Source of the DNA: Sanguibacter suarezii NBRC 16159
GTDB lineage: Bacteria > Actinomycetota > Actinomycetes > Actinomycetales > Cellulomonadaceae
Direction of reading: 5' to 3'
Assembly: GCF_001552735.1 (NCBI RefSeq)
Contig: NZ_BCRT01000001.1
Location: forward strand, 1-64,000
Length of the DNA: 64,000 nt
Part shown: positions 6,972 to 63,481 of the stretch, in pieces
Position numbering within the stretch: position 1 is the stretch's first letter
How the letters are laid out: every line of letters begins with the position of its first letter
The notes under the pieces: generated by a model
What the model was told of the DNA's origin: nothing
Database searches by the model: none
What the model saw: the letters and a program-made list of their open reading frames with translations, nothing else
Translations under genes and position numbers: made by a program

Positions 6972-9900
6972 ATGAGCTCTGCTCCGGACAGCCTGCTCGA
7001 CGACGCGGTCGCCCTGGCACGGTGCTGGCTGGCCACCGCGCAGGAGGAGCCTGCCCGGGCCAGCCGGTCCACCCGCCGCCTGACCGACCTCGTCGCCGAC
7101 CCCGATGGCCTCGACCTGGCCATCCGCTTCGTCGACCGGGTGGCCCGGCCCGAGGACGACCGCGTCGCCGCTCGGGAGCTCGCCGAGCTGCGCGGCCCGG
7201 TCCGTTCCGCCCGGGCCTTCCTCGGTCCGCTGGACCAGTCCTTGCTGCAGGCCGGCGCGGTGCTGGCCCCCGCCCTGCCCGGCGTCGTCGTGCCCGCTGC
7301 CCGGGCCCGGTTGCGCCAGCTCGTCGGCGATCTCGTGGCCGACGCCGGTCCGGACCTGGCCTGTCACGTCGCGCGGCTGCGCGCGGAGGGCTTCCGCGCC
7401 AACATCAACCTGCTCGGCGAGGCGGTGCTCGGTGAGCACGAGGCCGAGGACCGGGTGCGGCGCCTGCGCGAGCTCATCCAGCGCCCGGACATCGACTACG
7501 TCTCGATCAAGACCACCGCGGTGGTCAGCCAGCTCTCCGCCTGGGACACCGCCGACGCCGTGCACCGCATCACCGCGACCGTGCGCCCGCTCTACCTCTG
7601 CGCCGCCCGGCACGACACCTTCCTCACCCTGGACATGGAGGAGTACCACGACCTCGCGCCCACGCTGGGCGTCTTCCTGCGCCTCATGGCCGACCCCGAG
7701 CTGGCCGCATCGCCGATGGGCGTGGCGCTGCAGGCCTACCTCCCGGACGCCTCCGCCGCCCTGGACACCGTCACCCGTGCGGCCACCCGGCGTCGCGCCG
7801 AGGGCGGCGCAGCCGTCAAGGTCCGGCTGGTCAAGGGCGCCAACCTCGCCATGGAGCGGGTCGACGCCGAGCTGCACGGCTGGGCCCAGGCTCCCTACCT
7901 GACCAAGGCCGACACCGACGCGCACTACGTCCGCCTGCTCGACCACGCCCTGAGCCCCGAGCGCACCCGGTCCGTGCGGATCGGGCTGGCCAGCCACAAC
8001 CTCTTCGACGTCGCCCTCGGTCATCTGCTCGCCCGCCGCCGCGGGGTGCGCTCCGGCCTCGACGTGGAGATGCTCCAGGGCATGGCTCCCGCGCAGGCTC
8101 GCGCGGTGCGGGACACGATCGGCCCGCTCGTGCTCTACACACCGACCGTCGCCGGGCAGGACTTCGACACCGCGGTGTCCTACCTGGTCCGGCGGCTGGA
8201 GGAGAACGCCGCCGGGGAGAACTTCCTGCACGCCCTGACCTCGGCGCCACAGGCGATGGCAGGCCAGGAGCGTGCCTTCCGGGAGGCCGTCGCCGCAGCT
8301 GCGACGGTCGCCACCACCCCCCGGCGCACCCCTCGGCCCGCCCCTGCTCCGCCTCCTCCCCGCCCCTTCGCCAACTCTCCGGACACCGACCCGGCGCTGG
8401 CAGCGAACCGTGAGTGGGCACGGCGCATCGTGTGCCCGGCCACCGCCCGCGAGCTGCTCGCCGACCTGCCACCCACCCAGGCGGTGGGCACGGCGGACGA
8501 GGCGCACGCGGTCGTGGCGCGCGCCGTCGGCCAGGTGCCCGGCTGGGGCCGCACGACGCCGGCCCAGCGGTGGGAGGTGCTGCGCACCGCGAGCCGGCTG
8601 CTCGAGGACGCTCGCACGGACCTCGTCGCGACGATGGTCCACGAGGCGCACAAGACCGTCGCCGAGGCAGACCCCGAGGTCAGCGAGGCGGTCGACTTCG
8701 CGGCGTACTACGCCGAGCAGGCCCTGGCGCTGGACTCGGTCCCTGGGGCCGTGTTCAGCCCGGAGGGGGTCACCCTCGTCACGCCGCCGTGGAACTTCCC
8801 GGTGTCCATCCCGCTCGGCTCCGTGCTGGCGTCCCTGGCCGCCGGAGCGCCGGTGGTCATCAAGCCCTCCCGCCTCACCCCGCGGTGCACCGAGGTGGGG
8901 ATCCGCGCGGTGCGCGCGGCCCTGGCAGCCCATGGTCACGACCCCGACGTGGTGCAGGTGGTGCGCGCCCTGGACGACGACGCCGGACGCGCTCTGGTCA
9001 CGGACCCGCGCGTCACCCGGGTGCTGCTCACCGGGTCCCTGGAGACGGCCCAGCGCTTTGCCCGGTGGCGTCCGGAGCTCGCGGTGCTGGCGGAGACCTC
9101 GGGCAAGAACGCGATCATCGTGACCCCGGCGGCGGACATCGACCTGGCTGTCGCGGACGTCGTCCGCTCGGCCTTCTCCCACGCCGGCCAGAAGTGCTCG
9201 GCGGCGTCGCTGCTCGTCCTCGTCGGCTCCGCGGGGCGCAGCAGGCGGTTGCGCCGCCAGCTGGCCGATGCGGTGACCTCCCTCGCCGTCGGGCAGGCGA
9301 CCCGGCTGGCCACGACGATGGGGCCGCTCACCGGCCCGCCCTCGGACAAGCTGCTGCACGCCCTGACCACGCTGGAGGCCGGTGAGCAGTGGCTGGTGCG
9401 CCCCCGCCGGGTGCCTTCCCTGGTGCCCGGCGACGCCGAGAACCTGTGGACGCCCGGGGTCAAGGTCGGCGTGCGGCCCGGGTCCGCCTTCCACCTCACC
9501 GAGGTGTTCGGGCCCGTGCTGGGGGTGATGCGGGCCGACACCCTCGACGAGGCGATCGATCTGGCCAACGCTGTGCCCTTTGGCCTGACCAGCGGGCTGC
9601 AGTCCCTGGACGAGCAGGAGATCGCGCACTGGACGGACCGCATCGAGGTGGGCAACGCCTACGTCAACCGGCACATCACCGGTGCGATCGTGGGTCGCCA
9701 ACCCTTCGGCGGGTGGAAGGCGTCGGTCGTGGGCCCCGGTGCCAAGGCCGGCGGCCCCGGATACGTCGCCCAGCTCGGCGCCTGGCACGACGACGGCGAC
9801 GTCCCCGACCGCGAGAGCGCACCGCGAGCGTGGCTCGCCTGGGCGCTGGCCGACGACGCCCGCTGCTGGTCCGCCCTCCGCGAGGGCCGCGAGCTGGCCG

Positions 9901-10289
9901 GGCTGCGGGCGGAGTCGAACGTGCTGCGCTACCGCCCGCTGCCCACTGTGACGGTCCGGGAGGGCGCCGGCGCGCTGGCGGTGGAGGTGGACCGGGTGCT
10001 GGCCGCGGCCACCCGGGTGGGGACTTCAGTGACCATGAGCCGGGCGAGCGCCGAGGACGACGCGACCTTCGCCGCCCGGGTGGCCGACGGGACGGTGACC
10101 GGGCGCATCCGAGTCGTGGGGAGCGCGCCGGGGCTGCGAGCCGCGGCGGCGGAGCGCACCGGGTCGGTGACCGTGCTGGACCAGCCGGTCGTGGCGAGCG
10201 GGCACCGCGAGCTGCTGACGATGCTGCGTGAGCAGGTGGTGTCCAGGACCGTGCACCGGTTCGGGCACGTGCCCGGCGCCGACACCTAG
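6972..10289 (+). CDS. putA: Bifunctional proline dehydrogenase / L-glutamate gamma-semialdehyde dehydrogenase (PutA)
   Basis: 1105 residues. It oxidises proline to P5C (FAD domain), then glutamate semialdehyde to glutamate (NAD domain). There is no N-terminal ribbon-helix-helix, so it should not act as its own repressor as in enterobacteria. Proline dehydrogenase barrel: RLVKGANLAMERVDAELHGW, RIGLASHNLFDVALG and VEMLQGMAP (about 280-375). Aldehyde dehydrogenase: TPPWNFPVSIPLGSVLASL, ETSGKN (catalytic-face Glu near 707), SHAGQKCSAAS (nucleophilic Cys near 742) and QPFGGWKASVVGPGAKAGGP. About 140 further residues form the C-terminal extension seen in longer PutA types. Many actinobacteria carry the two enzymes as separate proteins, so the fusion is noteworthy. 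GGAGG sits directly before the ATG. Confidence 0.95.
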   Translation: MSSAPDSLLDDAVALARCWLATAQEEPARASRSTRRLTDLVADPDGLDLAIRFVDRVARPEDDRVAARELAELRGPVRSARAFLGPLDQSLLQAGAVLAPALPGVVVPAARARLRQLVGDLVADAGPDLACHVARLRAEGFRANINLLGEAVLGEHEAEDRVRRLRELIQRPDIDYVSIKTTAVVSQLSAWDTADAVHRITATVRPLYLCAARHDTFLTLDMEEYHDLAPTLGVFLRLMADPELAASPMGVALQAYLPDASAALDTVTRAATRRRAEGGAAVKVRLVKGANLAMERVDAELHGWAQAPYLTKADTDAHYVRLLDHALSPERTRSVRIGLASHNLFDVALGHLLARRRGVRSGLDVEMLQGMAPAQARAVRDTIGPLVLYTPTVAGQDFDTAVSYLVRRLEENAAGENFLHALTSAPQAMAGQERAFREAVAAAATVATTPRRTPRPAPAPPPPRPFANSPDTDPALAANREWARRIVCPATARELLADLPPTQAVGTADEAHAVVARAVGQVPGWGRTTPAQRWEVLRTASRLLEDARTDLVATMVHEAHKTVAEADPEVSEAVDFAAYYAEQALALDSVPGAVFSPEGVTLVTPPWNFPVSIPLGSVLASLAAGAPVVIKPSRLTPRCTEVGIRAVRAALAAHGHDPDVVQVVRALDDDAGRALVTDPRVTRVLLTGSLETAQRFARWRPELAVLAETSGKNAIIVTPAADIDLAVADVVRSAFSHAGQKCSAASLLVLVGSAGRSRRLRRQLADAVTSLAVGQATRLATTMGPLTGPPSDKLLHALTTLEAGEQWLVRPRRVPSLVPGDAENLWTPGVKVGVRPGSAFHLTEVFGPVLGVMRADTLDEAIDLANAVPFGLTSGLQSLDEQEIAHWTDRIEVGNAYVNRHITGAIVGRQPFGGWKASVVGPGAKAGGPGYVAQLGAWHDDGDVPDRESAPRAWLAWALADDARCWSALREGRELAGLRAESNVLRYRPLPTVTVREGAGALAVEVDRVLAAATRVGTSVTMSRASAEDDATFAARVADGTVTGRIRVVGSAPGLRAAAAERTGSVTVLDQPVVASGHRELLTMLREQVVSRTVHRFGHVPGADT

Positions 10290-10323
10290 CCGGCGCGGCT
10301 GAGGCTGTCAGCAGCGCAGCCGG

Positions 10324-10926
10324 TCAGAGACCGTCCGTGAGGGCAATCACCGCCGCGAGCACCTCGTCGAAGCTGCGCTCGGGCTGGAAGACCAGCCACT
10401 CCAGCCCGGCCACCAGGGTGGCACCGAAGACCGCAGCAGCCAGCAGCGAGACGTCCGCGCCGGGCCGGGCCTCGGCCAGGGCGACGGCGTAGAACTCGAT
10501 GACCTCGGCACGGATGTGCCCGACGGTCTCCTGCCACTCCCGTCCCACCCGGAACACCTCGGCGGCGAGCAGCTTGGCAAAGTTCGGGTGGTTGCGGATC
10601 TGCTCGAGGAGCTCGGCGATCAGCGCGACGAGGGCTTCCTTGCCCACCAGTCCCGCGCGGGCCGCCTCCAGGGTGCTGGTGAGACGTTCCAGGCCGCCGG
10701 CCAGCACGGCCTCGAAGACGTCGCTCTTGGACCCGAAGTTGTAGTAGACGCTGCCCTTGGCCACGCCGGCTGCCGCCGCGATGTCGTCGACCGACGTCGC
10801 GGTGAACCCTTGGTCGGCGATGAGGTCGACCGCCGCGTCCATGATCTGCTGGCGGGTCCCGGCGCGACGTGCCGCGAAGGCCTTCTCCCGCGGGGTCCTC
10901 GAGGCTTCGGTGCCCACCATTCCCAC
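10324..10926 (-). CDS. TetR-family transcriptional regulator
   Basis: 200 residues counted from the GTG at 10926; an ATG two codons in (10920) is an equally good start. The N-terminal helix-turn-helix is canonical: IMDAAVDLIADQGFTATSVDDIAAAAGVAKGSVYYNFGSK (about residues 29-68; the recognition helix is the GVAKGSVYYNF part). A ligand-binding helical domain follows. It is the last gene of a minus-strand cluster after a YhgE-type membrane protein and an ABC-type ATPase, and a palindrome typical of TetR operators (14391-14404) stands at the head of that cluster. Autoregulation of the cluster, with an inducer exported or sensed by the membrane protein, is the likely reading but is inference. It converges on putA. 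Confidence 0.93.
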   Translation of the reverse strand: MGMVGTEASRTPREKAFAARRAGTRQQIMDAAVDLIADQGFTATSVDDIAAAAGVAKGSVYYNFGSKSDVFEAVLAGGLERLTSTLEAARAGLVGKEALVALIAELLEQIRNHPNFAKLLAAEVFRVGREWQETVGHIRAEVIEFYAVALAEARPGADVSLLAAAVFGATLVAGLEWLVFQPERSFDEVLAAVIALTDGL

Positions 10927-52048: not shown

Positions 52049-53596
52049 TCACAGACCGTCTCCGTCGCCCCCGTCCGGGCTGTCGGCGGTGACCCGGGGA
52101 CGGTCGAGGTCGTCGTCCTCGATCCGGTCCATCTGGGCGGTGCGCTCGCGCTCCTCGATGACCTCCTGCCCGGGACCGGCAAAGGCCTTGGATCGTTCCT
52201 CCGCCTCCTGGCTCCCGCTGAACAGTCCCTCGGGGGCGATGACCTGGGTCTCCTCCACCGACGTCGGCGCCTTCGGCGCCGTGACCGCGGGCAGCACCAT
52301 GGTGGCTTCCTCGGCCGGTTCGGGGAACACACCTCGGCCGGGCTCGGACAGGTGCATGCGCAGGCCGGGGCGGGTACGGACCGGAACGCGGCGCGGGATC
52401 GACGGCGGTGCGGCCGGGCTGGGCTCCGCGGGGGCGGGCGCCTTGGTGAGCCCGTCCGTGCGGTGGGAGGGGGTCGGCGCTGCGGGAGCGGCGCCCACGA
52501 GGGCGTCCTCGTCGGTGCCGGCCTCGTCGAGGACCATCTCGACGTCGGGCGCCCCACGCATGAGGCGGGTGCGCGGCACACCCTGCGGGGCGACGCGGTG
52601 CAGCCAGTCGACCAGGCCCTCACGGATGTAGCAGCGCAGGTCGAACAGGGTCCCGGCGTCGGCGGCGCTGGCCAGGGCGCGGACCCGGACGTAGCCGTTG
52701 GTCGCGTCGGTGACCTGCAAGATGCCCACCCGCTTGTCCCACAGCGGGCTCGCCTCGAGCAGGCGCTTGAGCTCGACGCGCATCGGGGCGAGCGGCACGT
52801 CCCAGTCCAGGTCGATCTCGACGGTGCCGAGCAGCTCGGCCGCGCGCCGGGTCCAGTTCTGGAAGGGGGTGTTGGTGAAGTACGTGCACGGCATGATGAG
52901 CCGGCGGTCGTCCCACAGGTGCACCACCACGTAGGTCATGGTGATCTCCTCGATGCGACCCCACTCCCCCTCGAGCACCACGACGTCGTCGACGCGGATG
53001 GCGTCGGTGAAGGCGATCTGCATCCCGGCGAAGACGTTGGCCAGCGACGTCTGGGCGGCCAGACCGGCGACGATCGAGATGAGACCGGCCGAGGCGAGCA
53101 GGCTCGCCCCGGCGGCGCGGGCCTGCGGGAAGGTCAGCAGCACCCCGGACATGGCCAGGACGACGATGAGCGCGACGGTGAGGCGGCGCACCAGCGAGAT
53201 CTGAGTGCGGATGCGGCGGGCGTGGCGGTTGTCCGCGACGTCCGTGCGGTACCGCTTGAGCACACTGTCCTCCACGACGAAGGCCAGCGCCCCGACGAAC
53301 CAGGCGCCCATGATGATGAACAGGACGAGCAAGAAGTGGTCGACCGCGGGCAGCCAGCCCACCGCGGGGTTCGTGACGGCCCGGACGGCGATCCACACCG
53401 CCAGCACCATGAGCAGGCCGCGGGTGGGCCGGCGGACCCGGCGGGCGATGTCCCCCACCAGGAAGCTCCGGCGCCCGATCCGGCGGACCACCCCGGCGAG
53501 CACGGTGGTCAGCACGAAGGCGACCACGAGCGCGAGGATCACGGCGAGCACGGTCACCAGGAGGTTTGTGGCAGCAGTCAGTTCTTCCTCAGGCAT
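52049..53596 (-). CDS. MscS-family mechanosensitive channel with long cytosolic tail
   Basis: 515 residues. Four N-terminal helices, then the pore helix and beta domain (SAGLISIVAGLAAQTSLANVFAGMQIAFTDAIRVDDVVVLEGEWGRIEEITMTYVVVHLWDDRRLIMPCTYFTNTPFQNWTR, about 170-250), as in MscS. About 190 extra C-terminal residues are Pro-, Ala- and charge-rich with acidic ends, predicted disordered, and absent from typical MscS. It likely relieves osmotic downshock; the tail may bind cytosolic partners. Confidence 0.92.
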   Translation of the reverse strand: MPEEELTAATNLLVTVLAVILALVVAFVLTTVLAGVVRRIGRRSFLVGDIARRVRRPTRGLLMVLAVWIAVRAVTNPAVGWLPAVDHFLLVLFIIMGAWFVGALAFVVEDSVLKRYRTDVADNRHARRIRTQISLVRRLTVALIVVLAMSGVLLTFPQARAAGASLLASAGLISIVAGLAAQTSLANVFAGMQIAFTDAIRVDDVVVLEGEWGRIEEITMTYVVVHLWDDRRLIMPCTYFTNTPFQNWTRRAAELLGTVEIDLDWDVPLAPMRVELKRLLEASPLWDKRVGILQVTDATNGYVRVRALASAADAGTLFDLRCYIREGLVDWLHRVAPQGVPRTRLMRGAPDVEMVLDEAGTDEDALVGAAPAAPTPSHRTDGLTKAPAPAEPSPAAPPSIPRRVPVRTRPGLRMHLSEPGRGVFPEPAEEATMVLPAVTAPKAPTSVEETQVIAPEGLFSGSQEAEERSKAFAGPGQEVIEERERTAQMDRIEDDDLDRPRVTADSPDGGDGDGL

Positions 53597-53606
53597 GGTC
53601 TCTAGG

Positions 53607-54503
53607 CTAGGCAGAAGTCCTGGGAGTATCCCGGTCGAGGACGTCCCGAGCTCCGTCGAGCAGCCACTGAGCGATCTGCTCGCCGCCTGTTGCCCCTGCT
53701 GAGAGCGTTATCGCGAGCCCCGGCGTGATCCACGACACGTCGTGCAGCTCCCCGTGCGCCGGGCGGATCGCGGCGGTCGCCGACTCGAGCATCTCGGCGT
53801 CGAGCAGGGAGTCCCCGGCGGCCAGCACGGTGTCCGCACCGACGCGGCGGGCCACCTCGGCGACGGCCGAGCCCTTGCGCAGCTCGTTGGGGACGAGATA
53901 GAGCTTGCGACCCTGCAGCGAGGCCCGCCAGCCGTGCTCGCGTGCCCAGTCGGTGACCTCCTCGACGAAGCCGTCGGGCATCTTCTCCCGCTCGACGACG
54001 GCGTAGCAGAACAGGTCCTCGGCGCTGCGCACCTTCTTGGTCCACTCCGGCTTGAACACCGCGTGCATGTAGCCGTCCACCTCGGCGAAGGGGTGGGAGG
54101 TCTCGGCCAGGACGGTGGCCACCCGGGCCGACCACGCGGCGTCCGCGACGCCGTCGACGAGGAGGAAGCCGCCGTTGGCGGTGACCGCGTACTGCGGCGG
54201 CGGCCCGGGCAGCGTGATGCGGTGGTACTGGGCGCGGGTCCGGGTGGTGGCCGGGACGAGCACGCCCAGCTCGTTGAGCTCGGTGATCGTGGCCAGCGCC
54301 GCACGGGTCACGTGGGAGAGCGGTGCGTCCTTGTACATCTCCACGCAGACGAGGTCTTCGTAGAGCGGGGTGGACTTGAGCTTGGCCCCCGGCGGCAGAC
54401 CGAGCTTGACGGCCTTGCCGGAGTAGATGAGCGTGCGGTCGAGGTCACTCGCCGCGATGACAGGAGTAACCGGGGTGACCGGGGTGCGTCTGTCCCCGCT
54501 CAT
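53607..54503 (-). CDS. HAD-family phosphatase of the Ter-associated biosynthetic operon
   Basis: 298 residues. HAD motif I ASDLDRTLIYS (about 18-28), motif II TTRT within VLVPATTRTRAQYHRI, Cof-type cap, and motif III/IV VLAAGDSLLDAEML (about 230). It removes a phosphate from a small molecule. Start ATG 54503 overlaps the StiP gene stop (ATGA), so it is translated with it. In Ter-associated gene sets a HAD phosphatase is predicted to finish a nucleoside-like product. That role is inference. Confidence 0.88.
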   Translation of the reverse strand: MSGDRRTPVTPVTPVIAASDLDRTLIYSGKAVKLGLPPGAKLKSTPLYEDLVCVEMYKDAPLSHVTRAALATITELNELGVLVPATTRTRAQYHRITLPGPPPQYAVTANGGFLLVDGVADAAWSARVATVLAETSHPFAEVDGYMHAVFKPEWTKKVRSAEDLFCYAVVEREKMPDGFVEEVTDWAREHGWRASLQGRKLYLVPNELRKGSAVAEVARRVGADTVLAAGDSLLDAEMLESATAAIRPAHGELHDVSWITPGLAITLSAGATGGEQIAQWLLDGARDVLDRDTPRTSA

Positions 54504-55726
54504 CGGCTGGCCGTCCCGTCGGCGCCGGTCGCGCCTCGGGTGAACTGCGGGTGGATGAGGCCCACGCAGCTGTAGGGCAGGTCGTCGACCTCGACGATCT
54601 CCACCCCGCGCTGGGTCGCGAGCAGGCGCACGTGCGCCAGCTCGGCGCTCGCGTCGGCGCGCACGAGGATCTTCCACGGCACGCGGCGCAGCAGAACCCG
54701 GGTGGTCTCCCCGACGCCGGGCTTGACCAGGTTGACGTCACCCAGGCCGTACTCGGCGCTGATCGCCTCGACGGCCTTCCAGCCCGCCCAGGTGATCTCC
54801 GGCGCTGGCTCGGCGCGGCGCGCGGCGACCGTCCCGGCCACGCTGGCCGCCACCGTGGAGAACTGCGCGCTGACCATGTCGCAGAACTCCGCGGAGACGT
54901 CCGCCGGGGCGAGCTCGGCGTAGAACTTGGCCCCGTGGAACATCCCCGGGCCGATCAGCGCGTCGTTGAGCACAGTCCGTGAGACCAGGCCGGAGACGGT
55001 GGAGTTCAGGCACGCGGACGGGATGAGGTAGTCCTCGCGGGTCCCGAACAGCTCCGCGCAGTGCCCCGGGTCGGCGAGGACCGCGAGGTCGGAGCGGAAC
55101 CCGGCCCGGGCGCCGTCGGCACCGGTCAGCCCGAGCGCGACGTTCGCCTGCTCGACGGCGGCCGCGAGCTCGCGGGAGATCGCACCCTTGCCGGTCCATC
55201 CGTCAACGAACATGACGTCCTGGGGCCGGTGGTGCTCGGCGAGGTAGGCGAGGGCGACCTGGTCGATCCCGCGCCCGCGCACGATGGACGCTGCGTAGTG
55301 CGGCAGGGTGAGGCCGTGGGCGTAGCTGGCCCAGCGGCGCATGAGCACACCGATCGGTGTACCGGCACGGGCCAAGGACACGAGCACCGCTCGCTCTCCA
55401 CGCTCGGCGATGACGAGGTCGGTGACCACACCGACCGCGTGGGCCAGGCGCACGGCCGACTCGCGCAGCGCGGAGTGGAAGAGGTCCTGGTACTCCTGCG
55501 TGGGCTGGTACTCGACCGGCAACGACTCCGCGTAGTGCGCACCCCCGGACTGGATGGCCTCCTCGCGCTCCTCCGTCGGCGCCTCGAGCTCGACCGAGGA
55601 CAGGTCGCTGAGCAGCCAGGCGACCTCGTGGGAGTCGTAGGAACCGAAGTCCGGGCCGCGCAGCGGCTCGGGCAGGGCAGGCGCCGCCGGCCCGGCAGGG
55701 GTGGCGGTGTCAGGCTGGATGGTCAC
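54500..55726 (-). CDS. StiP-type protein (predicted cysteine protease) with PELOTA domain
   Basis: 408 residues. The StiP region (about 25-270) shows GSYDSHEVAWLLSDLS, SGGAHYAESLPVEYQPTQEYQDLF, LVSLARAGTPIGVLMRRWA and VDGWTGKGAISREL. The C-terminal PELOTA-like RNA-binding domain is the segment VPWKILVRADASAELAHVRLLATQRGVEIVEVDDLPYSCVGLIHPQF (about 340-390). This domain pair is one of the named parts of predicted Ter-dependent metabolite operons. GTG 55726 has AGGAGG 7 nt upstream, overlapping the preceding stop. The catalytic residues of StiP are unproven. Confidence 0.85.
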   Translation of the reverse strand: MTIQPDTATPAGPAAPALPEPLRGPDFGSYDSHEVAWLLSDLSSVELEAPTEEREEAIQSGGAHYAESLPVEYQPTQEYQDLFHSALRESAVRLAHAVGVVTDLVIAERGERAVLVSLARAGTPIGVLMRRWASYAHGLTLPHYAASIVRGRGIDQVALAYLAEHHRPQDVMFVDGWTGKGAISRELAAAVEQANVALGLTGADGARAGFRSDLAVLADPGHCAELFGTREDYLIPSACLNSTVSGLVSRTVLNDALIGPGMFHGAKFYAELAPADVSAEFCDMVSAQFSTVAASVAGTVAARRAEPAPEITWAGWKAVEAISAEYGLGDVNLVKPGVGETTRVLLRRVPWKILVRADASAELAHVRLLATQRGVEIVEVDDLPYSCVGLIHPQFTRGATGADGTASR

Positions 55727-55737
55727 TGGGTGGCCTC

Positions 55738-57135
55738 CTAGGGGCGGTACGCGGGGATGACGACCACGTGCACGTGGTCGCACCACCCGGCGACGCTGTC
55801 GACCAGGCCGCCAGGCATGGAGAGCTCGGCTGTGTCAGCAGGCGAGTCGATGACCACGACGATATCGGTGAATCGACGGGTCGAGTCGTCGCCGGGGGCG
55901 ACGTTGTGGGCAAAACGCGGGCCAGGGCCGTCGTCGGGCGCGTCGTGTGAGGGGAAGGTCACAGTTGTGCGGATCGCGTAGCCCGGGTCGTCGACGGCGA
56001 GCACCGGGGACCGGGTGGTCGTGGAGAACCGCACCTGCGTCCCGGCCGGGACGTCCTCGGCGAGCGCCTGCGCCACGCGCAGCGGGGCGTACATGAGCTC
56101 CTCGAAGCCGAGCACCAGCACGCGCTCCCCCACGAGCTGCTGCCCGACGACGTGGGCGACCTCGCGCGCCGCCGTCACCAGCGGCGCCTCGTGGGCCGGC
56201 TCGAAGCCGTGCCGGCCACCGTCGCGCACCGTGGTGGGCCATGCCTCGACCCGGGTGACCGGGGCAGAGGACGCGGCCGGGCGCGAGGCGGCTGCCGCGG
56301 TGAGCTCGACGACGAGGCGACCCGCCTCGTCGAGGATCCCGTCCGGCAAGGTGATCTCCCCGCTCGCGAGGGTCACCACGTCGATGCGGGTGCCCAGCCG
56401 GGCGGCGACCTGAGCGAAGATCTCGCGGTCGGCGCCCGAGCGCAGGTCGATGAGCGCGGCGACGACGTACCGCCCGCGGGGGCGGTCCGCGTGCAGGGCC
56501 TCGATGGTGTTGAGGGCCGTCTTGCCGGTGGAGATCTCGTCGTCGACGAGCACCACGGTGTCCGCCGCGGCGAGGAAGGTGGGGTCCTCGGGCAGCAGCA
56601 GGTGCTCGGTCGCGTGGGAGTGCTCCTCGGCGAACCCGGCCGCCGGCGCGACGCCCGCCACCGGGCGGCGGGTGGAGTGCAGCGACGGGACAGCGAGCGC
56701 TTCGCCGACGCAGTGCCCCAGGGCCGTCGCGGTCTCGGCGTAGCCGACCACGACCGTTCCGGCCGGGGTGACGGGTGCGTCCTCAGCCAGGGCGTCGACG
56801 GCTGCCAGCAGCTCCGCCGCGGCGCCGGGGACGGCGTCGGTCGCGCGGGCCAGGAGGCCAGCGACCCCCGCCGCGCGGGCCGCCGCGGCGACCCGGTCGG
56901 TGCCGGCCAGCTCACCGGCGGTGAGGACGCCGAGCAGCCGGCCCGCGGCGTAGACGAGGCGCGGGTCCGTCGGCACGTGCTTGCCGAGCACCGTCGAGAC
57001 GAGCAGGTGCGCCCGGCGCGGGTTGCGCCGGATGGCCAGCCCGACGAGGTCGTCGAGACTGATCCCGGCCGCGGACCGGCCCGAGTGGATCCCGACCCCG
57101 AGGCGACCGGCGACCCACGTGCTGGCGACGCTCAC
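55738..57135 (-). CDS. Phosphoribosyltransferase with TRSP domain
   Basis: 465 residues. The PRPP-binding loop VVLVDDEISTGKTALNTIEAL (about 190-212) marks a type I phosphoribosyltransferase; the flexible loop and pyrophosphate segment lie before it (VVGYAETATALGHCVGEAL). The C-terminal half (RVEAWPTTVRDGGRHGFEPAHE, ERVLVLGFEELMYAPLRVAQAL, STTTRSPVLAVDDPGYAI) is the TRSP domain found only with such proteins. It is predicted to attach or remove a base-like moiety on ribose-5-phosphate in the Ter-associated pathway. GTG 57135 overlaps the lyase stop (GTGA). Confidence 0.87.
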   Translation of the reverse strand: MSVASTWVAGRLGVGIHSGRSAAGISLDDLVGLAIRRNPRRAHLLVSTVLGKHVPTDPRLVYAAGRLLGVLTAGELAGTDRVAAAARAAGVAGLLARATDAVPGAAAELLAAVDALAEDAPVTPAGTVVVGYAETATALGHCVGEALAVPSLHSTRRPVAGVAPAAGFAEEHSHATEHLLLPEDPTFLAAADTVVLVDDEISTGKTALNTIEALHADRPRGRYVVAALIDLRSGADREIFAQVAARLGTRIDVVTLASGEITLPDGILDEAGRLVVELTAAAASRPAASSAPVTRVEAWPTTVRDGGRHGFEPAHEAPLVTAAREVAHVVGQQLVGERVLVLGFEELMYAPLRVAQALAEDVPAGTQVRFSTTTRSPVLAVDDPGYAIRTTVTFPSHDAPDDGPGPRFAHNVAPGDDSTRRFTDIVVVIDSPADTAELSMPGGLVDSVAGWCDHVHVVVIPAYRP

Positions 57136-58289
57136 AGCTGGTGGCTCGCGGAGAGCACGTCGACGTAGGTGATGTCCTCGTGGACCACGCCGAAGACGCG
57201 GGCGCGGCGCACGAGCTGCTCGGCCCACGCGCGGTGCGGCTTGGCCTCGTTCATCTTGTTGCGGTACTGGGAGGCGTTGACCCCGCCGGTCGTGGCACCG
57301 AGGATCTCCTGGGCGTCCACGTACTCCTCGTGGGAGACCACCGAGAGGGCGTGCACGGCGGCGACGTGGGAGGGGTGGATCACCGTCTTGCCGGTGAGGC
57401 CGTTCGCCTGGTCCAGGACCACCTCACGGATGAGGCCGTCGAGGTCGGCGTCGATCATCCTCACGCGCAGGGTCCGCTCGTCGTGCTCGGCGAAGGGCGT
57501 CTCGCGCAGCTGGGGCTTGAAGATGCGCTCGTGCTGGGCGAAGTACTCCCACACCGGTCCGGTGATGAGGTACCCGGCCTCCCCCGCCCGGCCCAGGACG
57601 TTGACGATGTCGGAGATGACGTCCGCGACGACGTGGACGTGGTAGATCGTCAGCTCACGGTTGCGGCGCAGGCCGTAGGCCGAGGACAGGTCCGTCGCAC
57701 CGATGCGCACGGCCAGGATGGTGCTGCGGTACTTGCTGAGCACCTGGGCGATCGAGGCCAGCTCGGAGGCGCGCGACTCGCGGTAGGCGAGCTCGGGCGA
57801 CTCCAGGACCGGCATGGCGTAGAGCCGGCGTCCGGCTGCCGCGCTCGCTGCCTCCACGGCGTCGAGGTACTCCACACCGCTCTCGCCGAGGAACTTGGGG
57901 ATGACGAAGCCCGAGAGCACCGACAGGTGCTCGCCGAGCCCTTCGGTGATGAGCGGGATCTGGTAGGCCGCCCGCACCCGGACGAACAGCAGCGGGCCGG
58001 GGGTCTTCATCTGCGCGAAGGCACGCAGCTGCTCGACGACGTTGATCTCCGCGGCGGGCACGTCCTCGTCGGCGATGGAGTCTTCCAGGCACACCACGAG
58101 CGAGACCACGCCGCGCGCGGCCCGCTTGGCGATGTCCTGGGCGAGGGTGGGCCGGGTGCCAGGGCTGTAGAGGGTCGCTCCCAGGGCCATGGCCAGGATC
58201 TGCGGATCGCTGTCGACGGTGAACTGCTCGGGTGCTCGGAAGAACAGACGCTCGATCTCGGCGTCGCCCAAGTACTCAAAATGGCGCAT
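57132..58289 (-). CDS. CitE/HpcH-HpaI-like aldolase or lyase of the Ter-associated operon
   Basis: 385 residues. TIM-barrel aldolase signatures: VVSLVVCLEDSIADEDVPAAE with the Glu-Asp metal pair, PLLFVRVRA, RLYAMPVLESPELAYRE (metal Glu), RIGATDLSSAYGLRRNRELTIYHVHVVAD and GKTVIHPSHVAAVHA. It probably cleaves or forms a C-C bond using a divalent cation. First gene of the four-gene minus operon; ATG 58289 has AGGA close by. The substrate is unknown. Confidence 0.88.
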   Translation of the reverse strand: MRHFEYLGDAEIERLFFRAPEQFTVDSDPQILAMALGATLYSPGTRPTLAQDIAKRAARGVVSLVVCLEDSIADEDVPAAEINVVEQLRAFAQMKTPGPLLFVRVRAAYQIPLITEGLGEHLSVLSGFVIPKFLGESGVEYLDAVEAASAAAGRRLYAMPVLESPELAYRESRASELASIAQVLSKYRSTILAVRIGATDLSSAYGLRRNRELTIYHVHVVADVISDIVNVLGRAGEAGYLITGPVWEYFAQHERIFKPQLRETPFAEHDERTLRVRMIDADLDGLIREVVLDQANGLTGKTVIHPSHVAAVHALSVVSHEEYVDAQEILGATTGGVNASQYRNKMNEAKPHRAWAEQLVRRARVFGVVHEDITYVDVLSASHQL

Positions 58290-58460
58290 TTTTCCTGGCT
58301 CTCTACCTACTCGAACCCGTCGTCGTGACGCGGGTCCCCCGCTCGCCGCACTGAGGAGCAGTTCAAGATAACCGACGCGGACAGGCACCTGGAACCACGC
58401 GCCCTGGGGTGAAGTACCCATGCTGTGCCGGGCACCGCCAGGCTCTGTCACCATGGACCC
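58290..58460. promoter_or_regulatory. Divergent promoter region of the Ter island
   Basis: About 170 bp separate the metabolite operon (leftward) from the two-domain TerD gene (rightward). No perfect palindrome or clear consensus promoter pair was found, but the layout implies that both are controlled from here. Confidence 0.45.
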
Positions 58461-59867
58461 ATGACGCAGATGAGCAAGGGCTCCAACATCCCGTTGTCCG
58501 CCGCCAGGATCCGCGCCGAGCTGGTCTGGGAGACCCGTCCGACGACCCCAGACGTGGACGCGTCGGCGCTGCTGCTGGCCCCGTCCGGGAAGGTCCGGTC
58601 CGACGACGACTTCGTGTTCTTCAACCAGCCGAACCATGCCTCCGGGGCGGTGCGCAAGCTGCCCAAGCAGACCGCGGGGACGCAGGTGCGTGACGCGCTG
58701 GAGATCGACGTGACGCGCATCGAGCCCGAGGTGGACCGCATCGTCCTGGGCTCCTCGGCGGACGGTGGCACCTTCAGCGAGGTCCCCGGCCTGCACCTGC
58801 TCCTCACCGACCTCGCCACGAACACCCAGATCGCGCGCTTCGACATGACGGACGCGACCTCGGAGACGGCGTTCTTGTCCGGGGAGATCTACCGCCGGGG
58901 CGGGGACTGGAAGTTCCGCGCCGTCGGGCAGGGATACGCCTCCGGCCTGGAGGGCCTGGCGACCGACTTCGGGATCACCGTGGACGACGAGCCGGCGCCG
59001 GCGCCGGCTGCTGCTGCGCCCGTGTCCGCACCCGTGGCCACACCGCCGGCAGCCGCGCCGTCGATCGCGTACTCCCGACCCGCCCCTGCGGCACCAGCCG
59101 CTGCGCCGGCACCGATCCAGTACTCCCGCCCGGCACCTGCTCCTGCGGCCCCTCCCGCGCCTCCTGCACCCCCGGCGCCGTCCGCGCCGATCCAGTACTC
59201 TCGCCCCGCGCCGGCGTCGGGCACGGCTGCCCCGGTTCCCGGTTACGCGCCGCCGCCCGTGGGTGCACCGGTCGCTCCGGCGCGTGGGACGGTCAACCTC
59301 GACAAGGGCCGGGTGAGCCTGCGCAAGAACGAGCGGGTCAGCCTGGTCAAGACGGGCGCACCCGCGCTCAACCGCATCCAGCTGGGCCTGGGGTGGGACC
59401 CGGCGGTCGGGTCGAAGTCCATCGACCTCGACGCCTCGGCGATCGTGCTCAACGCAGCGGGCAAGGACATCGACCTGGCCTGGTTCATGTCGAAGAAGGC
59501 CTGCAAGGGTGCCGTCCAGCACCAGGGCGACAACGTCACCGGTCAGGGCGACGGCGACGACGAGGTCATCCTCGTCGAGCTGGACAGGCTGCCCGCCGAG
59601 GCGGCCGCGATCGTCTTCACGATCAACTCCTTCTCCAGCCACAAGTTCACCGACATCAAGAACGCCTACTGCCGGCTCGTGGACACCACGACCCGGGCCG
59701 AGCTGGTCCGCTTCGACCTGACCGACTCCAAGCCGTCCACCGGGGTGTTCATGTGCGTGCTGCGCCGCGCCGGTGCGGCCTGGGAGATGGAAGCCCTCGG
59801 TGCCTTCCACGACGGCCGCACCGTCAAGGCGATGCGCGCCCCCGCCGCCGCCTTCGTCCGCTCCTGA
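58461..59867 (+). CDS. Two-domain TerD protein with YSRP linker
   Basis: 468 residues. N-terminal TerD-like domain (about 5-175: [79 protein letters not shown]). It lacks the acidic GDN..GDGDDE calcium cluster, reading KQTAGTQVRDALE there. A Pro/Ala-rich linker of about 100 residues contains three YSRPAP units. The C-terminal TerD domain (about 285-460) is canonical: NRIQLGLGWDP, IDLDASAIVLN and QHQGDNVTGQGDGDDEVILVELD. TerD domains bind Ca2+ and form membrane-linked stress complexes. ATG 58461; MSKGSN 9 nt on is an alternative. Confidence 0.9.
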   Translation: MTQMSKGSNIPLSAARIRAELVWETRPTTPDVDASALLLAPSGKVRSDDDFVFFNQPNHASGAVRKLPKQTAGTQVRDALEIDVTRIEPEVDRIVLGSSADGGTFSEVPGLHLLLTDLATNTQIARFDMTDATSETAFLSGEIYRRGGDWKFRAVGQGYASGLEGLATDFGITVDDEPAPAPAAAAPVSAPVATPPAAAPSIAYSRPAPAAPAAAPAPIQYSRPAPAPAAPPAPPAPPAPSAPIQYSRPAPASGTAAPVPGYAPPPVGAPVAPARGTVNLDKGRVSLRKNERVSLVKTGAPALNRIQLGLGWDPAVGSKSIDLDASAIVLNAAGKDIDLAWFMSKKACKGAVQHQGDNVTGQGDGDDEVILVELDRLPAEAAAIVFTINSFSSHKFTDIKNAYCRLVDTTTRAELVRFDLTDSKPSTGVFMCVLRRAGAAWEMEALGAFHDGRTVKAMRAPAAAFVRS

Positions 59868-59870
59868 ACG

Positions 59871-59919
59871 ACGACGGGCTCGGTAGGGCGACGCAGAGCC
59901 GCCCTACCGAGCCCGTCGT
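59871..59919. terminator. Bidirectional hairpin terminator within the Ter island
   Basis: Perfect 20-bp stem (59871-59890 and 59900-59919), 9-nt loop, between convergent TerD genes. Confidence 0.88.
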
Positions 59920-59933
59920 GGTCTACGGCGTGG

Positions 59934-60509
59934 TCACAGGTACGGGGTGACCGCCGGGAGCAGCTGGTCGAAGGTGCGGCCCGACGTCGGCGCGCCGATC
60001 GCCGTCATGGACCACCCGGCACCGTCGCGCGCGACCTTCGCCATGACCTGGGCGTTGTGCGTGCCCGAGCCGGAGAGGTTGTAGCGAGCGACCTCGGAGT
60101 TGTCCGTCTCGTCGACGAGGCGGCAGAAGGCGCTCTCGATCTGCGTGAAGTCCTGGCCGGTGAAGGAGTTCACCACGAAGACGACCGTCGAGACGTTCGC
60201 CGGGACCCGGGTGAGGTCGACGATGATCGACTCGTCGTCACCGTCGCCCGCGCCGGTGCGGTTGTCACCGGTGTGCAGGACGGAGCCGTCCTTGCTCTGC
60301 AGCTGGTTGAACCAGACGACGTCCACGAGGTTCCCCGCGGCGTCGAAGAGCAGCCCGGACGCGTCCAGGTCGATCTCCTGCTCCTTCTTCCCGAAGAAGC
60401 CGCGCTTCTTCATCGCGTCCCAGCCCAGCCCCATCCGCACACGGGTGAGCGTGCCTCCGGTCGGCTTGGTGAGGGAGACCTTCTGGCCCTTGGACAGGTT
60501 CACAGACAT
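59934..60509 (-). CDS. terD: TerD/TerZ-family calcium-binding stress protein
   Basis: 191 residues. SVNLSKGQKVSLTKPTGGTLTRVRMGLGWDAMKKRGFFGKK, EIDLDASGLLFDAAGNLVD, VLHTGDNRTGAGDGDDESIIVDLTRVP and RYNLSGSGTHNAQVMAKVARDGAGWSMTAIG. The insertion KKRGFFGKKEQ after the first strand is typical of the TerZ-like subgroup. The acidic loop should bind Ca2+. It follows the TerA-like gene by 67 bp on the same strand. Confidence 0.93.
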   Translation of the reverse strand: MSVNLSKGQKVSLTKPTGGTLTRVRMGLGWDAMKKRGFFGKKEQEIDLDASGLLFDAAGNLVDVVWFNQLQSKDGSVLHTGDNRTGAGDGDDESIIVDLTRVPANVSTVVFVVNSFTGQDFTQIESAFCRLVDETDNSEVARYNLSGSGTHNAQVMAKVARDGAGWSMTAIGAPTSGRTFDQLLPAVTPYL

Positions 60510-60576
60510 GGGAGTCCTTTCGCCGCCGCGGCCTTGGCCGTCGACGTGGTGGGGTCGGTCGAACAGCTGAAGAGGT

Positions 60577-61266
60577 CTACTTGCGGCCAGGGACCCAGCT
60601 CAGGCCCCAGCCGTAGGTCTCGTCGAGGGCCTTGTGCCCGCCCTGGATGTACTTCACCTCGCGGCGTACCTGCAGGCCGGAGGGGCTGTTGGTGATCTCC
60701 GCGATGGCGCAGATCCGCGAGGACGGGTCCGACTCGTCCAGGCGGACCTCGATCTGCGCGCCCGACGGCGGGGTCAGCGTGACCACCCCGTCCGCGGCCG
60801 CCCAGTTGGAGGCGCCCTCGTAGATCATGGCGAAGACCAGCACCCGGCGGAGCGCCGGGGTCTGGCTCAGGTCGATCGTGAGGTTCTCCCCGCCCTGCAC
60901 CTTCCCCGAGCGGTCGTCTCCGTCGAGCCAGATGATGCGGCGCTGGGAGGAACCGTCGAAGGCCTCGAAGGAGTTGCCCAGCGCCTGGACCACGCCCTTG
61001 GTGCCGTCGGTGAACTCGTAGAGGCAGGCCAGGTCGAGGTCGACCGGGCGGGAGGTGAGCTTGGCCAGGAAGCCCTTGGCGGGGGCTGCGCTCTGCCAGT
61101 TGAGGTTGACCCGCAGGACGCCGGAGGAGACCGCCTCCTTGGTCAGCGAGACGCTCGGGGCCGACTTGGTGAGCGTGATCTTGGACAGCGACACCGGTGC
61201 GCCCGTCGGCGCCGCGGCGCTCGGGTCAGGCTGGGCCGGTGTGCGGCGCGTGTAGTCGATCGCCAT
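60577..61266 (-). CDS. TerA-like TerD-superfamily protein
   Basis: 229 residues. N-terminal Thr/Ser-rich leader, then SKITLTKSAPSVSLTKEAVSSGVLRVNLNW, PVDLDLACLYEFTDGTKGVVQALG, IIWLDGDDRSGKVQGGENLTIDL, and a C-terminal KYIQGGHKALDETYGWGLSWVPG, which resembles TerA C-terminal sequences. The Ca2+ loop is variant (DGDDRSGKVQGGENL). Part of the TerA-TerD unit. Confidence 0.85.
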   Translation of the reverse strand: MAIDYTRRTPAQPDPSAAAPTGAPVSLSKITLTKSAPSVSLTKEAVSSGVLRVNLNWQSAAPAKGFLAKLTSRPVDLDLACLYEFTDGTKGVVQALGNSFEAFDGSSQRRIIWLDGDDRSGKVQGGENLTIDLSQTPALRRVLVFAMIYEGASNWAAADGVVTLTPPSGAQIEVRLDESDPSSRICAIAEITNSPSGLQVRREVKYIQGGHKALDETYGWGLSWVPGRK

Positions 61267-61319
61267 GAGGTCCTCCAGGAGAGTGCTGGGCGGGCGGGCG
61301 GTGCGCAGACGATCCTGCG

Positions 61320-61346
61320 CGGGCGGGCCGGTGACCGGCCCGCCCG
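61320..61346 (-). terminator. Hairpin terminator after the TerC-like gene
   Basis: Perfect 12-bp GC stem (61320-61331 and 61335-61346), 3-nt loop, 10 nt past the terC-like stop. It separates this gene from the following TerA/TerD genes. Confidence 0.75.
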
Positions 61347-61356
61347 GTGTGCTGGG

Positions 61357-62490
61357 TCAGGACTCGATCGAGCTCGAGGCGTGGTCGGACGTCGCACCAT
61401 CGCCCTGTGACCGGGCCGAGGGGTGGAGCTTGCGGTAGCGCAGCGAGGACAGGAACGCCGCACCGATGAAGACGACACCGACGAGGCCGGTGACGATCTC
61501 GTTCATGTGGACCTTGATCGAGATGAGCAGGATCGCTGCGAGGGCACCGATGGCCCAGTGCGCGCCGTGCTCGAGGAAGACGTACTCGGCCAGGGTGCCC
61601 TTGCGGACCAGGAAGATCGTGATGGACCGCACGAACATCGCACCGATGAACCCGAGGCCGAGCGCGATGATGACCGGGTCGGGGGTGATGGCGAAGGCGC
61701 CGATGACCCCGTCGAAGGAGAAGGACGCGTCGAGGACCTCGAGGTAGAGGAAGAGGAAGAACCCGGCCTTGCCGGTGGCCTTCGCCAGCTGGGTCGGACC
61801 GGAGGATCCGGTGGCCGGCGCGACGTCGGCGCCCTCCTCCATCTCAGCCTCGAGGTTGCCCTCGAAGAGGCTTCCCAGTCCGTTGACCGCGAGGTAGGTG
61901 AGCATCCCCAGGAGGCCGGAGAGGAGCACGGTGTGCGGGTCCTCGGCGAGGAACTCAGCCGCAGCCACCAGAGCCAGGCCGCCCACGAGCACGGAGAGGT
62001 TCGCGAGCTTGCCCACGCGGGCCAGCGGACGCTCGATCCAGGACAGCCAGCTGATGTCACGGTCCTCGAAGATGAAGTCGAGGAAGAGCATGAGGAGGAA
62101 GAGGCCACCGAAGGCGGCGATCTGCGGGTGTGCCTCGGCGAGGACGTAGCCGTAGGTCCCCGGGACGGAGGGGTCACCCTTCTCCATCGCGAGTTGGAGA
62201 GCTTCGACGGGGCCGAGGTTCGCCGTCACGCTCACGATGAGCAGCGGGAACACCAGACGCATGCCGAAGACGGCGATGAGCACGCCGACGGTGAGGAAGA
62301 TCTTCTGCCAGGCCTCGCTCATCCGCTCCAGGACCTTCGCGTTGACGACCGCGTTGTCGAAGCTGAGGGAGACCTCAAGGACACCCAGGATGAGGCAGAG
62401 GACGAAGGCGCTCCACCCTCCGTAGAAGAAGGCGGTGATCAGTGCCGCGATGGTGACGGCGAATGACCAGCCGAATGTGCGCAGAAACAT
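61357..62490 (-). CDS. TerC-family membrane protein (DUF475)
   Basis: 377 residues, about nine helices, the longer DUF475 branch of the TerC superfamily. Metal-binding-like acidic motifs lie in the membrane: GVLEVSLSFDNAVVNAKVL (about 35-53) and EVLDASFSFDGVIGAFAIT (about 245-263). TerC relatives load or export metal ions and couple to TerD proteins at the membrane. The start is ATG 62490; a terminator of the upstream TerD gene lies between them, so this gene may have its own promoter. Confidence 0.92.
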   Translation of the reverse strand: MFLRTFGWSFAVTIAALITAFFYGGWSAFVLCLILGVLEVSLSFDNAVVNAKVLERMSEAWQKIFLTVGVLIAVFGMRLVFPLLIVSVTANLGPVEALQLAMEKGDPSVPGTYGYVLAEAHPQIAAFGGLFLLMLFLDFIFEDRDISWLSWIERPLARVGKLANLSVLVGGLALVAAAEFLAEDPHTVLLSGLLGMLTYLAVNGLGSLFEGNLEAEMEEGADVAPATGSSGPTQLAKATGKAGFFLFLYLEVLDASFSFDGVIGAFAITPDPVIIALGLGFIGAMFVRSITIFLVRKGTLAEYVFLEHGAHWAIGALAAILLISIKVHMNEIVTGLVGVVFIGAAFLSSLRYRKLHPSARSQGDGATSDHASSSIES

Positions 62491-62532
62491 GCTGTTCCTT
62501 GTCTGGATGATGCACAGGGGGGAGACGTGCGT

Positions 62533-62574
62533 CCAGGGGACGGGCCGGACGAGGTCGTCCGGCCCGCCCCCTGG
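62533..62574 (-). terminator. Hairpin terminator after the first TerD gene
   Basis: 18-bp stem with one mismatch (62533-62550 and 62557-62574), 6-nt loop, 18 nt past the stop codon. Confidence 0.8.
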
Positions 62575-62592
62575 CGGTGGTGCAGCGGTGTC

Positions 62593-63168
62593 TTAGACGC
62601 CGACGCCGAAGTCACGGGCGATACCCGCGAGGCCCTCGGCGTAGCCCTGACCGACGGCGCGGAACTTCCACTCGGCGCCGTTGCGGTACAGCTCACCGAA
62701 GACCATGGCGGTCTCGGTCGAGGCGTCCTCGGACAGGTCGTAACGGGCGATCTCGGTGCCGCCTGCCTGGTTGATCACGCGGATGAACGCGTTACGGACC
62801 TGGCCGAAGCTCTGCGAACGGGTCGCGGCGTCGTAGATCGAGACCGGGAAGACGATGCGGTCGACCTCGGCCGGGACGGCCGCGAGGTTGACGGTGATCT
62901 GCTCGTCGTCGCCGTCGCCCTCACCGGTGAGGTTGTCACCGGTGTGCTGGACGGAGCCGTCGGCGCTGGTCAGGTTGTTGAAGAAGACGAAGTGGCCGTC
63001 GGAGATGACGCGGCCGTTGGTGCCGACGAGGATCGCGCTGGCGTCCAGGTCGAAGTCCACACCGGTGGTCGAACGGGCATCCCAGCCGAGGCCGATTGTC
63101 ACGGCGGTCAGGCCTGGTGCCTCTTTGGTGAGCGAGACGTTTCCGCCCTTGGTAAGACTGACTCCCAC
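62593..63168 (-). CDS. terD: TerD-family calcium-binding stress protein
   Basis: 191 residues, canonical Ter[97 protein letters not shown] and [39 protein letters not shown]. The full acidic Ca2+ loop is present. GTG 63168 with GGAG 5 nt upstream is chosen; the frame upstream to 63483 has no homology. Its C-terminus closely matches the first domain of the two-domain TerD protein, suggesting a local duplication. Confidence 0.94.
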
Positions 63169-63481
63169 GAGTACTCCAACGCTCAGGGCGGGCGCTTTCG
63201 CCCCCGCCGTTTCATTGATCCGCCACCCTGCGGGCGACGGGCCGACTATATCGCCCCGACCTTGACCGACGCTGGGTGATCCCTGACAACCGATGGGCAG
63301 AACTCCCCGTGCGGTCGTCGTGGAACCCGGTGCCGGTGATGGCGGCGCGACCGTGCCGGTCTGAGAGATACAACGCTCGATCACGGCCTCACGTTCCACG
63401 GAGTCCCGCACTCGCCCCACGCTCCCGGGTGAAACGGTTCGGACGTTGGAGCGGGACCGGTCGCCCAGTACCGTTCTTGCC
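63169..63481. promoter_or_regulatory. Divergent intergenic region between TerD and a lipoprotein gene
   Basis: About 310 bp. On the minus strand TATAGT (63250-63245) is a near-consensus -10 for the TerD gene, about 80 bp before its start; no matching -35 was found. No coding frame is supported. Confidence 0.4.

What the first reader, a model, noticed from the sequence alone, without database searches (positions are those of the whole stretch)
53607..63168. Ter-type stress island with a coupled metabolite operon but no ATP-grasp gene
Four minus-strand genes (CitE-like lyase, PRTase-TRSP, StiP-PELOTA, HAD phosphatase) overlap or nearly overlap start-to-stop. They diverge from TerD genes and a TerC-like gene. 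This matches the predicted Ter-dependent nucleoside-like metabolite system described from comparative genomics, whose chemistry and product are still unknown. In the described systems ATP-grasp enzymes are usual partners; none is present in the whole cluster. Either they lie beyond the right edge or this is a reduced version in which PRTase and lyase work without amide ligation.
Basis: partly seen in the sequence, partly recalled or inferred. Interest (0 to 1): 0.75.

Follow-up and report, generated by a model that had tools for sequence, protein, structure and literature searches.

The report
Bacterial Ter stress cluster, ATP-grasp elsewhere
This is an ordinary actinobacterial version of a known but poorly understood stress-response gene cluster; the supposedly missing ligase gene is present elsewhere in the same genome beside another gene of the same system, so the pathway looks scattered rather than reduced.

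Summary
The core observation holds: lyase, PRTase-TRSP, StiP-PELOTA and HAD genes (53607-58289) form a tight operon beside TerD/TerA-like/TerC(DUF475) genes, with no ATP-grasp in the cluster and no Ter-type one on its contig. "Reduced, works without ligation" is not supported for this genome: an ATP-grasp of the clade found in plasmid and viral Ter operons lies on contig C11, 107 bases from a convergent TerB gene, in 6 of 6 genus genomes. Non-adjacency is the actinobacterial rule: 0 of 84 operon loci of at least 20 kb have it adjacent. Strong genome-wide hits: 8 of 16 lyase-positive, 0 of 380 lyase-negative Actinobacteria; the other 8 lack it on re-search, so truly reduced versions exist elsewhere. 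Extras: an inverted repeat before both Ter transcription units in most genus genomes, and a StiP model closest to phosphoribosyltransferases, not proteases (weak scores). Chemistry and product remain unknown.

The parts
57132..58289 (-). CitE-type C-C bond lyase (PF15617), first gene of the enzyme operon
   Evidence: 8e-125; start; citrate-lyase-type structures are the best solved relatives
55738..57135 (-). phosphoribosyltransferase with TRSP domain (PF15609 + PF12500)
   Evidence: D198 D199 E200, T203 G204, T206 of the PRPP-type loop invariant in 5 sequences
54500..55726 (-). StiP-PELOTA protein (PF11202 + PF15608); N-terminal domain modelled as PRTase-like
53607..54503 (-). HAD-superfamily phosphatase, last of the four
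   Evidence: weak; position and synteny
52049..53596 (-). MscS-type mechanosensitive channel, 10 bases after the HAD gene; possible fifth gene of the operon in this genus
   Evidence: within the locus in 4 of 4 genus loci of at least 20 kb, 1 of 59 named actinobacterial loci of at least 20 kb
58290..58460 (.). divergent promoter region; TATCTT box and degenerate GGGT-N6-ACCC repeat on the operon side
58425..59867 (+). tandem TerD-TerD protein, divergent
   Evidence: 3.2e-87, two stretches
59934..60509 (-). TerD
   Evidence: 8.5e-50
60577..61266 (-). TerA-like / divergent TerD protein (name TerA recalled from the plasmid gene order)
   Evidence: 0.0026, below cut-off; one search matches L036:7855-9012 at 2e-47
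61357..62490 (-). TerC-like DUF475 membrane protein
   Evidence: DUF475 2.3e-126, TerC 5.3e-16
62593..63168 (-). TerD
   Evidence: 2e-86
63295..63308 (.). inverted repeat GGGGAG-NN-CTCCCC with one mismatch, 44 bases upstream of TATAGT before the TerD/TerC unit

Best explanation
The window holds the main locus of a Ter-dependent system of the known kind, as found across Actinobacteria. Shown: family membership, tight coupling, conserved synteny, a similar promoter design before the two Ter transcription units in most genus genomes, and an unlinked ATP-grasp of the same clade as the plasmid and viral Ter ATP-grasps, encoded beside TerB on another contig. Inferred: the operon makes a nucleotide- or nucleoside-like small molecule. 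The PRTase (and probably the PRTase-like StiP domain) joins a base or base-like group to PRPP, the C-C lyase makes or trims the acyl/carbon part, the HAD enzyme removes a phosphate, and the ATP-grasp, supplied in trans, adds an amino-acid-type group by amide ligation. TerD proteins, TerB and the TerC/DUF475 membrane protein sense or use the product in a membrane and metal stress response. The ligation step is an optional decoration: present in this genus and in part of Streptomyces, not found in other operon carriers.
For: Families. ATP-grasp: PF15632 hit on C11 at 7.1e-32; 28% identity in a 328-column alignment to the enterobacterial Ter ATP-grasp; bipartition with L036 and L168 at 99/97 support, leaving out 5 other ATP-grasps; TerB (PF05099 2.6e-22) 107 bases away, adjacent in 4 of 6 genus genomes; ATP-grasp in 6 of 6 and lyase in 6 of 6. 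Phyletic nesting: strong hits in 8 of 16 lyase-positive and 0 of 380 lyase-negative genomes (Fisher 9e-13 by genome, 3.6e-4 by genus). L168, a viral-collection contig, carries ATP-grasp, PRTase, HAD, StiP, lyase and TerB in one cluster. PRTase and StiP matches fall in one ORF in 75 of 80 named loci. Promoter repeat. StiP fold.
Against: The ATP-grasp gene sits near an FMN-reductase (Pfam) and MarR- and luciferase-like genes (by eye) in the genus, and near metallophosphoesterase- and PPTase-like ORFs (by eye) in Streptomyces, so another role is possible. TerB was not found in the ATP-grasp stretch of 2 of 6 genus genomes (L062, L063). The promoter repeat is not found before the ATP-grasp; one genome has it before TerB. 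It is absent at one mismatch before the lyase in 2 of 6 genomes, the window's own included. Within Streptomyces, ATP-grasp and lyase show no association (97 of 232 against 1 of 6, p 0.41), and one lyase-negative assembly has the ATP-grasp. By genus within the family the association is not significant (p 0.12). PF15632 itself is not specific: it also rings at 3.4e-31 for the C2 protein and in well-known control genomes. No product or activity is known.
Confidence: 0.7

Rival explanations
1. Reduced pathway: the operon works without any ligation here, and the C11 ATP-grasp serves something else (for example together with its FMN-reductase neighbours).
For: 8 of 16 lyase-positive actinobacterial genomes lack a Ter-grade ATP-grasp, as do 7 of 13 in the family and 135 of 232 lyase-positive Streptomyces at the cap (8 candidates scored per genome), so the operon can do without it; adjacent ATP-grasp in 0 of 84 loci.
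Against: Clade with Ter-linked ATP-grasps, TerB neighbour, and no strong homologue in 380 lyase-negative Actinobacteria (one weak hit at 6.6e-17) argue that the gene depends on the operon.
Confidence: 0.22
2. The cluster is a general metal/oxidative stress locus in which the four enzymes are a salvage module (recycling damaged nucleotides) rather than makers of a signal.
For: A CitE-type lyase, PRTase and HAD could run salvage; oxidative stress raises proteins annotated as tellurium resistance proteins in a Streptomyces (passages of PMC3912134); no defence-system profile matches the 8 proteins tested.
Against: Sporadic distribution (lyase in 16 of 396 Actinobacteria), though nearly universal in Streptomyces (232 of 238); and the similar promoter design with the TerD/TerC unit.
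Confidence: 0.2
3. An ATP-grasp was lost from this locus and the C11 copy is an independent acquisition.
For: A plasmid and a viral-collection operon carry it first in the cluster.
Against: No actinobacterial locus examined has it adjacent, and it is present in 6 of 6 genus genomes, so the separation is not recent; neither tree nor sampling settles the direction.
Confidence: 0.15

Closest known systems
Ter-dependent stress response systems, nucleoside-like metabolite branch (Anantharaman, Iyer and Aravind 2012, doi 10.1039/c2mb25239b; not held here, known through citing passages and recall)
   Same: Same enzyme families (PF15617, PF15609-PF12500, PF11202-PF15608, HAD) with TerD/TerC neighbours; Pfam describes PF15632 as ATP-grasp in the biosynthetic pathway with Ter operon
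   Different: ATP-grasp and TerB are not in the cluster but together on another contig; TerC is of the DUF475 type; none of the ten proteins typed is TerB, TerF, TerW or TerY
Enterobacterial plasmid ter locus (L036, E. coli IncHI2 plasmid stretch)
   Same: Lyase, PRTase and StiP 30-37% identical; enzyme genes divergent from TerD-type genes
   Different: The two HAD proteins gave no BLASTP match at 1e-3; order ATPgrasp-PRTase-HAD-StiP-lyase against lyase-PRTase-StiP-HAD here; ATP-grasp linked
Streptomyces and other actinobacterial Ter loci (L021-L035, L038, L082-L160)
   Same: Similar gene content: TerD, DUF475, lyase, PRTase, StiP, HAD, usually a TerA-like gene, and no adjacent ATP-grasp
   Different: PRTase and StiP mostly in one ORF; MscS in 1 of 80 named loci; promoter repeat not seen at these promoters in the 27 loci printed

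Membership tests
Ter nucleoside-like metabolite system | PRTase_2-TRSP, StiP-PELOTA, C-C lyase and HAD encoded together | tested here: met
   (HAD weak by profile), for coupling
Ter nucleoside-like metabolite system | linked TerD and TerC-type genes | tested here: met
Ter nucleoside-like metabolite system | Ter-type ATP-grasp in the cluster | tested here: not met
   absent from 84 of 84 actinobacterial loci of at least 20 kb, so it cannot be defining for this branch
Ter nucleoside-like metabolite system | Ter-type ATP-grasp somewhere in the genome | tested here: met
Ter nucleoside-like metabolite system | TerB | tested here: met
   not in the cluster; on C11 beside the ATP-grasp
[quoted passage not shown]
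   needs biochemistry
Cysteine protease (Pfam label of StiP) | conserved catalytic cysteine and protease fold | tested here: not met
   no invariant Cys in A3 (6 rows) or A4 (24 rows; C223, C239, C387 only nearly invariant); none of the 50 listed Foldseek hits (of 1387) is named a cysteine protease
Type I phosphoribosyltransferase (StiP N-terminal domain) | PRTase fold and PRPP loop | tested here: inconclusive
   AF2 pLDDT 79.3, pTM 0.84; PyrR/HGPRT hits with probability 0.91-1.00 but E 8e-4 to 1e-2 and target-normalised TM 0.38-0.55, with aminotransferases and sugar isomerases also listed at lower probability; profile comparison with PRTase_2 negative; PDB sequence search found only L7Ae-type proteins for the PELOTA part
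Anti-phage defence system | match to a PADLOC model | tested here: not met
   0 of 8 proteins

The most novel reading that the evidence does not exclude
The Ter metabolite pathway in Actinobacteria is a two-locus system: a core operon that makes a phosphoribosylated intermediate with two PRTase-type enzymes (PRTase-TRSP and a StiP that is a phosphoribosyltransferase, not a protease), and an optional unlinked ATP-grasp (with TerB in this genus) that decorates it, so that different species make two versions of one signal.
Probability: 0.35. Interest if true: 0.6.

Novelty: new member of a known kind. Interest (0 to 1): 0.35.

Why it matters
The citing passages seen here still call the product of Ter biosynthetic operons predicted or describe it only as nucleoside/nucleotide derivatives. 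A phylum in which the ATP-grasp is naturally unlinked, and found in only about half of the operon carriers sampled (8 of 16, 6 of 13, and at least 97 of 232), gives a natural comparison. Harmless laboratory Streptomyces with and without the ATP-grasp can be compared for metabolites, which makes the role of the ligation step testable. The StiP result warns that the protease label in databases may misdirect work.

Tried and rejected
Rejected: a Ter-type ATP-grasp just right of 64000. Rejected as Ter-type: the other PF15632 hits of this genome on C2 and C13 (the tree, leaves both outside the Ter clade, but both are long branches that the program warns about) and on C11:55548 (an open frame of 1108 aa, probably CarB by length and recall). 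Considered: StiP as a homologue of PRTase_2 by profile comparison; no hit. Considered: the promoter repeat as a signal shared with the ATP-grasp locus; not found except before TerB of one genome. Led nowhere: a viral-contig scan with the single StiP sequence (none of 17 candidates confirmed); paper searches for Sanguibacter with tellurite and for TerD, ATP-grasp, actinobacteria and operon together, one listed paper each, of which I read only the passages (PMC7824862). The founding 2012 paper is not held, so what it says about Actinobacteria and ATP-grasp could not be checked, and I make no claim that the split arrangement is unpublished.

Limits: only part of the ATP-grasp candidates were scored per genome (at most 5; at most 13; 8), so their counts are lower bounds; searches scored all. 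In one search the G002 match ran over one TGA upstream of the start that I used. The TerF column is a cross-match of its TerD domain and was not used. Only Ter-type ATP-grasps were sought genome-wide; other amide ligases were not.
Full report
Observation. Refined starts give an overlap of 4 bases, a gap of 11, and again an overlap of 4. Only a tandem TerD gene is divergent; TerD, TerA-like, DUF475/TerC and TerD genes lie on the minus strand like the operon. An MscS-type gene starts 10 bases after the HAD gene.

Organism. G005, in the same genus as the window genome, has a lyase contig of 88,700 bases, the length of the Sanguibacter suaedae contig of L081. By that inference the window is from Sanguibacter.

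Where is the ATP-grasp? The window is the start of a 234,694-base contig. A search of the whole genome with PF15632 at E up to 1 gave four places, none on this contig. The best, on C11 at about 123117-124241, aligns with the ATP-grasp of the E. coli plasmid ter operon (28% identity, 328 columns), which itself is PF15632 at 1.7e-37. PF15632 is not specific: the C2 protein scores 3.4e-31, and control genomes ring too. So I used other tests. In the ORF set the plasmid protein finds 19 sequences, itself included; after itself and the viral L168 protein come the Sanguibacter proteins, then the Streptomyces ones, then three others (L011, L074, L058). The tree of 17 rows puts the 10 actinobacterial proteins with L036 and L168 at 99/97 and leaves out L011, L012, L058, L065 and L074. 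It is drawn with a midpoint root and has five long branches, L036 and L168 among them.

Its neighbour is TerB. The gene 107 bases downstream, convergent, is TerB (PF05099 2.6e-22; gap). TerB is adjacent in 4 of 6 genus genomes and was not found in the stretches of the other two. The window cluster has neither TerB nor ATP-grasp, so C11 supplies both. Other Ter parts are scattered too: TelA near a TerD on C4, a TerD on C6, and a TerD domain at the end of an exonuclease-BRCT protein on C1.

How general is this? In one even sample of 396 actinobacterial genomes the lyase is in 16 (E up to 1e-30), StiP in the same 16 plus 4 weaker ones, and the ATP-grasp at 3e-79 or better in 8, all among the 16; one lyase-negative genome had a weak hit at 6.6e-17 that falls outside the clade (L058). 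The 8 remaining lyase-positive genomes were searched again with PF15632, all candidates scored: one (G112) had no match and the best was 3.7e-10 (G357). G357 and G176 do pass the Pfam cut-off, but the G357 protein (L065) falls outside the Ter clade and the G176 match is in an open frame of 1151 residues. In the family, lyase 13 of 150 and ATP-grasp 6 of 150, all six in this genus. In Streptomyces, lyase 232 of 238 and strong ATP-grasp (E up to 3e-77) 98 of 238; two further genomes have only weak hits near 1e-16 to 1e-17. One of the 98, G667, lacks the lyase; its assembly has about 780 contigs. Fisher tests: 9e-13 by genome and 3.6e-4 by genus in the phylum sample; 1.2e-7 by genome but 0.12 by genus in the family; 0.41 within Streptomyces. 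Genomes are related, so the genome-level values overstate the case. The gene is found almost only where the operon is, but the operon does not need it.

Adjacency. Among 107 actinobacterial operon loci (80 named, 7 family, 5 genus, 15 phylum) an adjacent Ter-type ATP-grasp was found in none; 84 of these are at least 20 kb, with at least two duplicates. By contrast the viral-collection locus L168 and the plasmid L036 have it in the operon; L037 and L169 gave no hit. In plasmids the lyase occurs in 2514 records (E up to 1e-5) and the ATP-grasp in 2497 (E up to 1e-10); of the ten genera listed in both answers nine have equal counts. I did not check that they are the same records.

Enzymes. The PRTase keeps its PRPP-type loop in 5 of 5 sequences. 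The lyase family's best solved relatives are citrate-lyase-type proteins. StiP has no invariant cysteine in 6 or 24 sequences. Its AF2 model (pLDDT 79.3, pTM 0.84) finds a PyrR structure first, the only hit below E 0.001; PyrR and HGPRT make up most of the 50 listed hits, with L7Ae-type proteins for the PELOTA domain and some aminotransferases and sugar isomerases. Scores are weak. PRTase and StiP matches fall in one ORF in 75 of 80 named loci. I read StiP as PRTase-like, not proven.

Regulation. GGGGAG-NN-CTCCCC with at most one mismatch lies upstream of the TerD/TerC unit in 6 of 6 genus genomes, 44-46 bases before TATAGT in all six. It lies upstream of the lyase in 4 of 6 (G002-G005): 45, 45 and 34 bases before TATCTT in three, with no such box in the fourth. 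It is absent at one mismatch before the lyase of G000, where only a degenerate GGGT-N6-ACCC form is seen, and of G001. These are all 10 hits at up to one mismatch in the window and L016-L020. Shuffles expect none without mismatch and 1.3 with one mismatch per 64 kb. Other hits: L008:16496 in the right flank, L061:1169 before TerB of G003. In one search, 12 of 107 other loci had a hit (1 of the 27 printed, at L026:19703); positions in the 80 named ones, which include the Sanguibacter locus L081, were not examined.

Literature. I saw passages of PMC12054061, PMC8115787, PMC7824862, PMC5512222, PMC7843439 and PMC3912134, not whole papers. They treat the biosynthetic cluster as predicted to make a nucleoside-like metabolite, or report stress regulation, or only cite the 2012 paper; none of the passages shown mentions an unlinked Ter ATP-grasp. 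The primary paper is not held.

Verdict. A real and correctly recognised member of a known system. Its ATP-grasp is not missing but elsewhere with TerB. The wider point, an optional in-trans ligation step across Actinobacteria, is useful and testable but rests on comparative genomics alone.

Noticed in passing
window 63295-63308 and genus loci L016-L020: Inverted repeat GGGGAG-NN-CTCCCC before the TerD/TerC unit (6 of 6) and the enzyme operon (4 of 6), at near-fixed distance from -10-like boxes; candidate operator of an unknown regulator.
   Followed up: partly
window 52049-53596: MscS-type channel gene 10 bases after the HAD gene, present in the 4 genus loci of at least 20 kb (at varying distance); possible link of the Ter response to membrane tension.
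   Followed up: partly
L043:8092-9291 and 9805-10392 (G000 C4): TelA gene near a TerD gene: another Ter-type locus in the genome.
   Followed up: partly
L044:9803-12124 (G000 C1 about 209-211 kb): Exonuclease-BRCT protein ending in a TerD domain.
   Followed up: no
L037 (MT836648.1, unverified phage record): A 15 kb record from human faeces labelled bacteriophage holds TerD genes, lyase, StiP and PRTase matches; may be bacterial DNA.
   Followed up: no
L168, L169 (IMG/VR contigs): Viral-collection contigs with Ter enzyme genes; L168 has ATP-grasp and TerB in the same cluster.
   Followed up: partly
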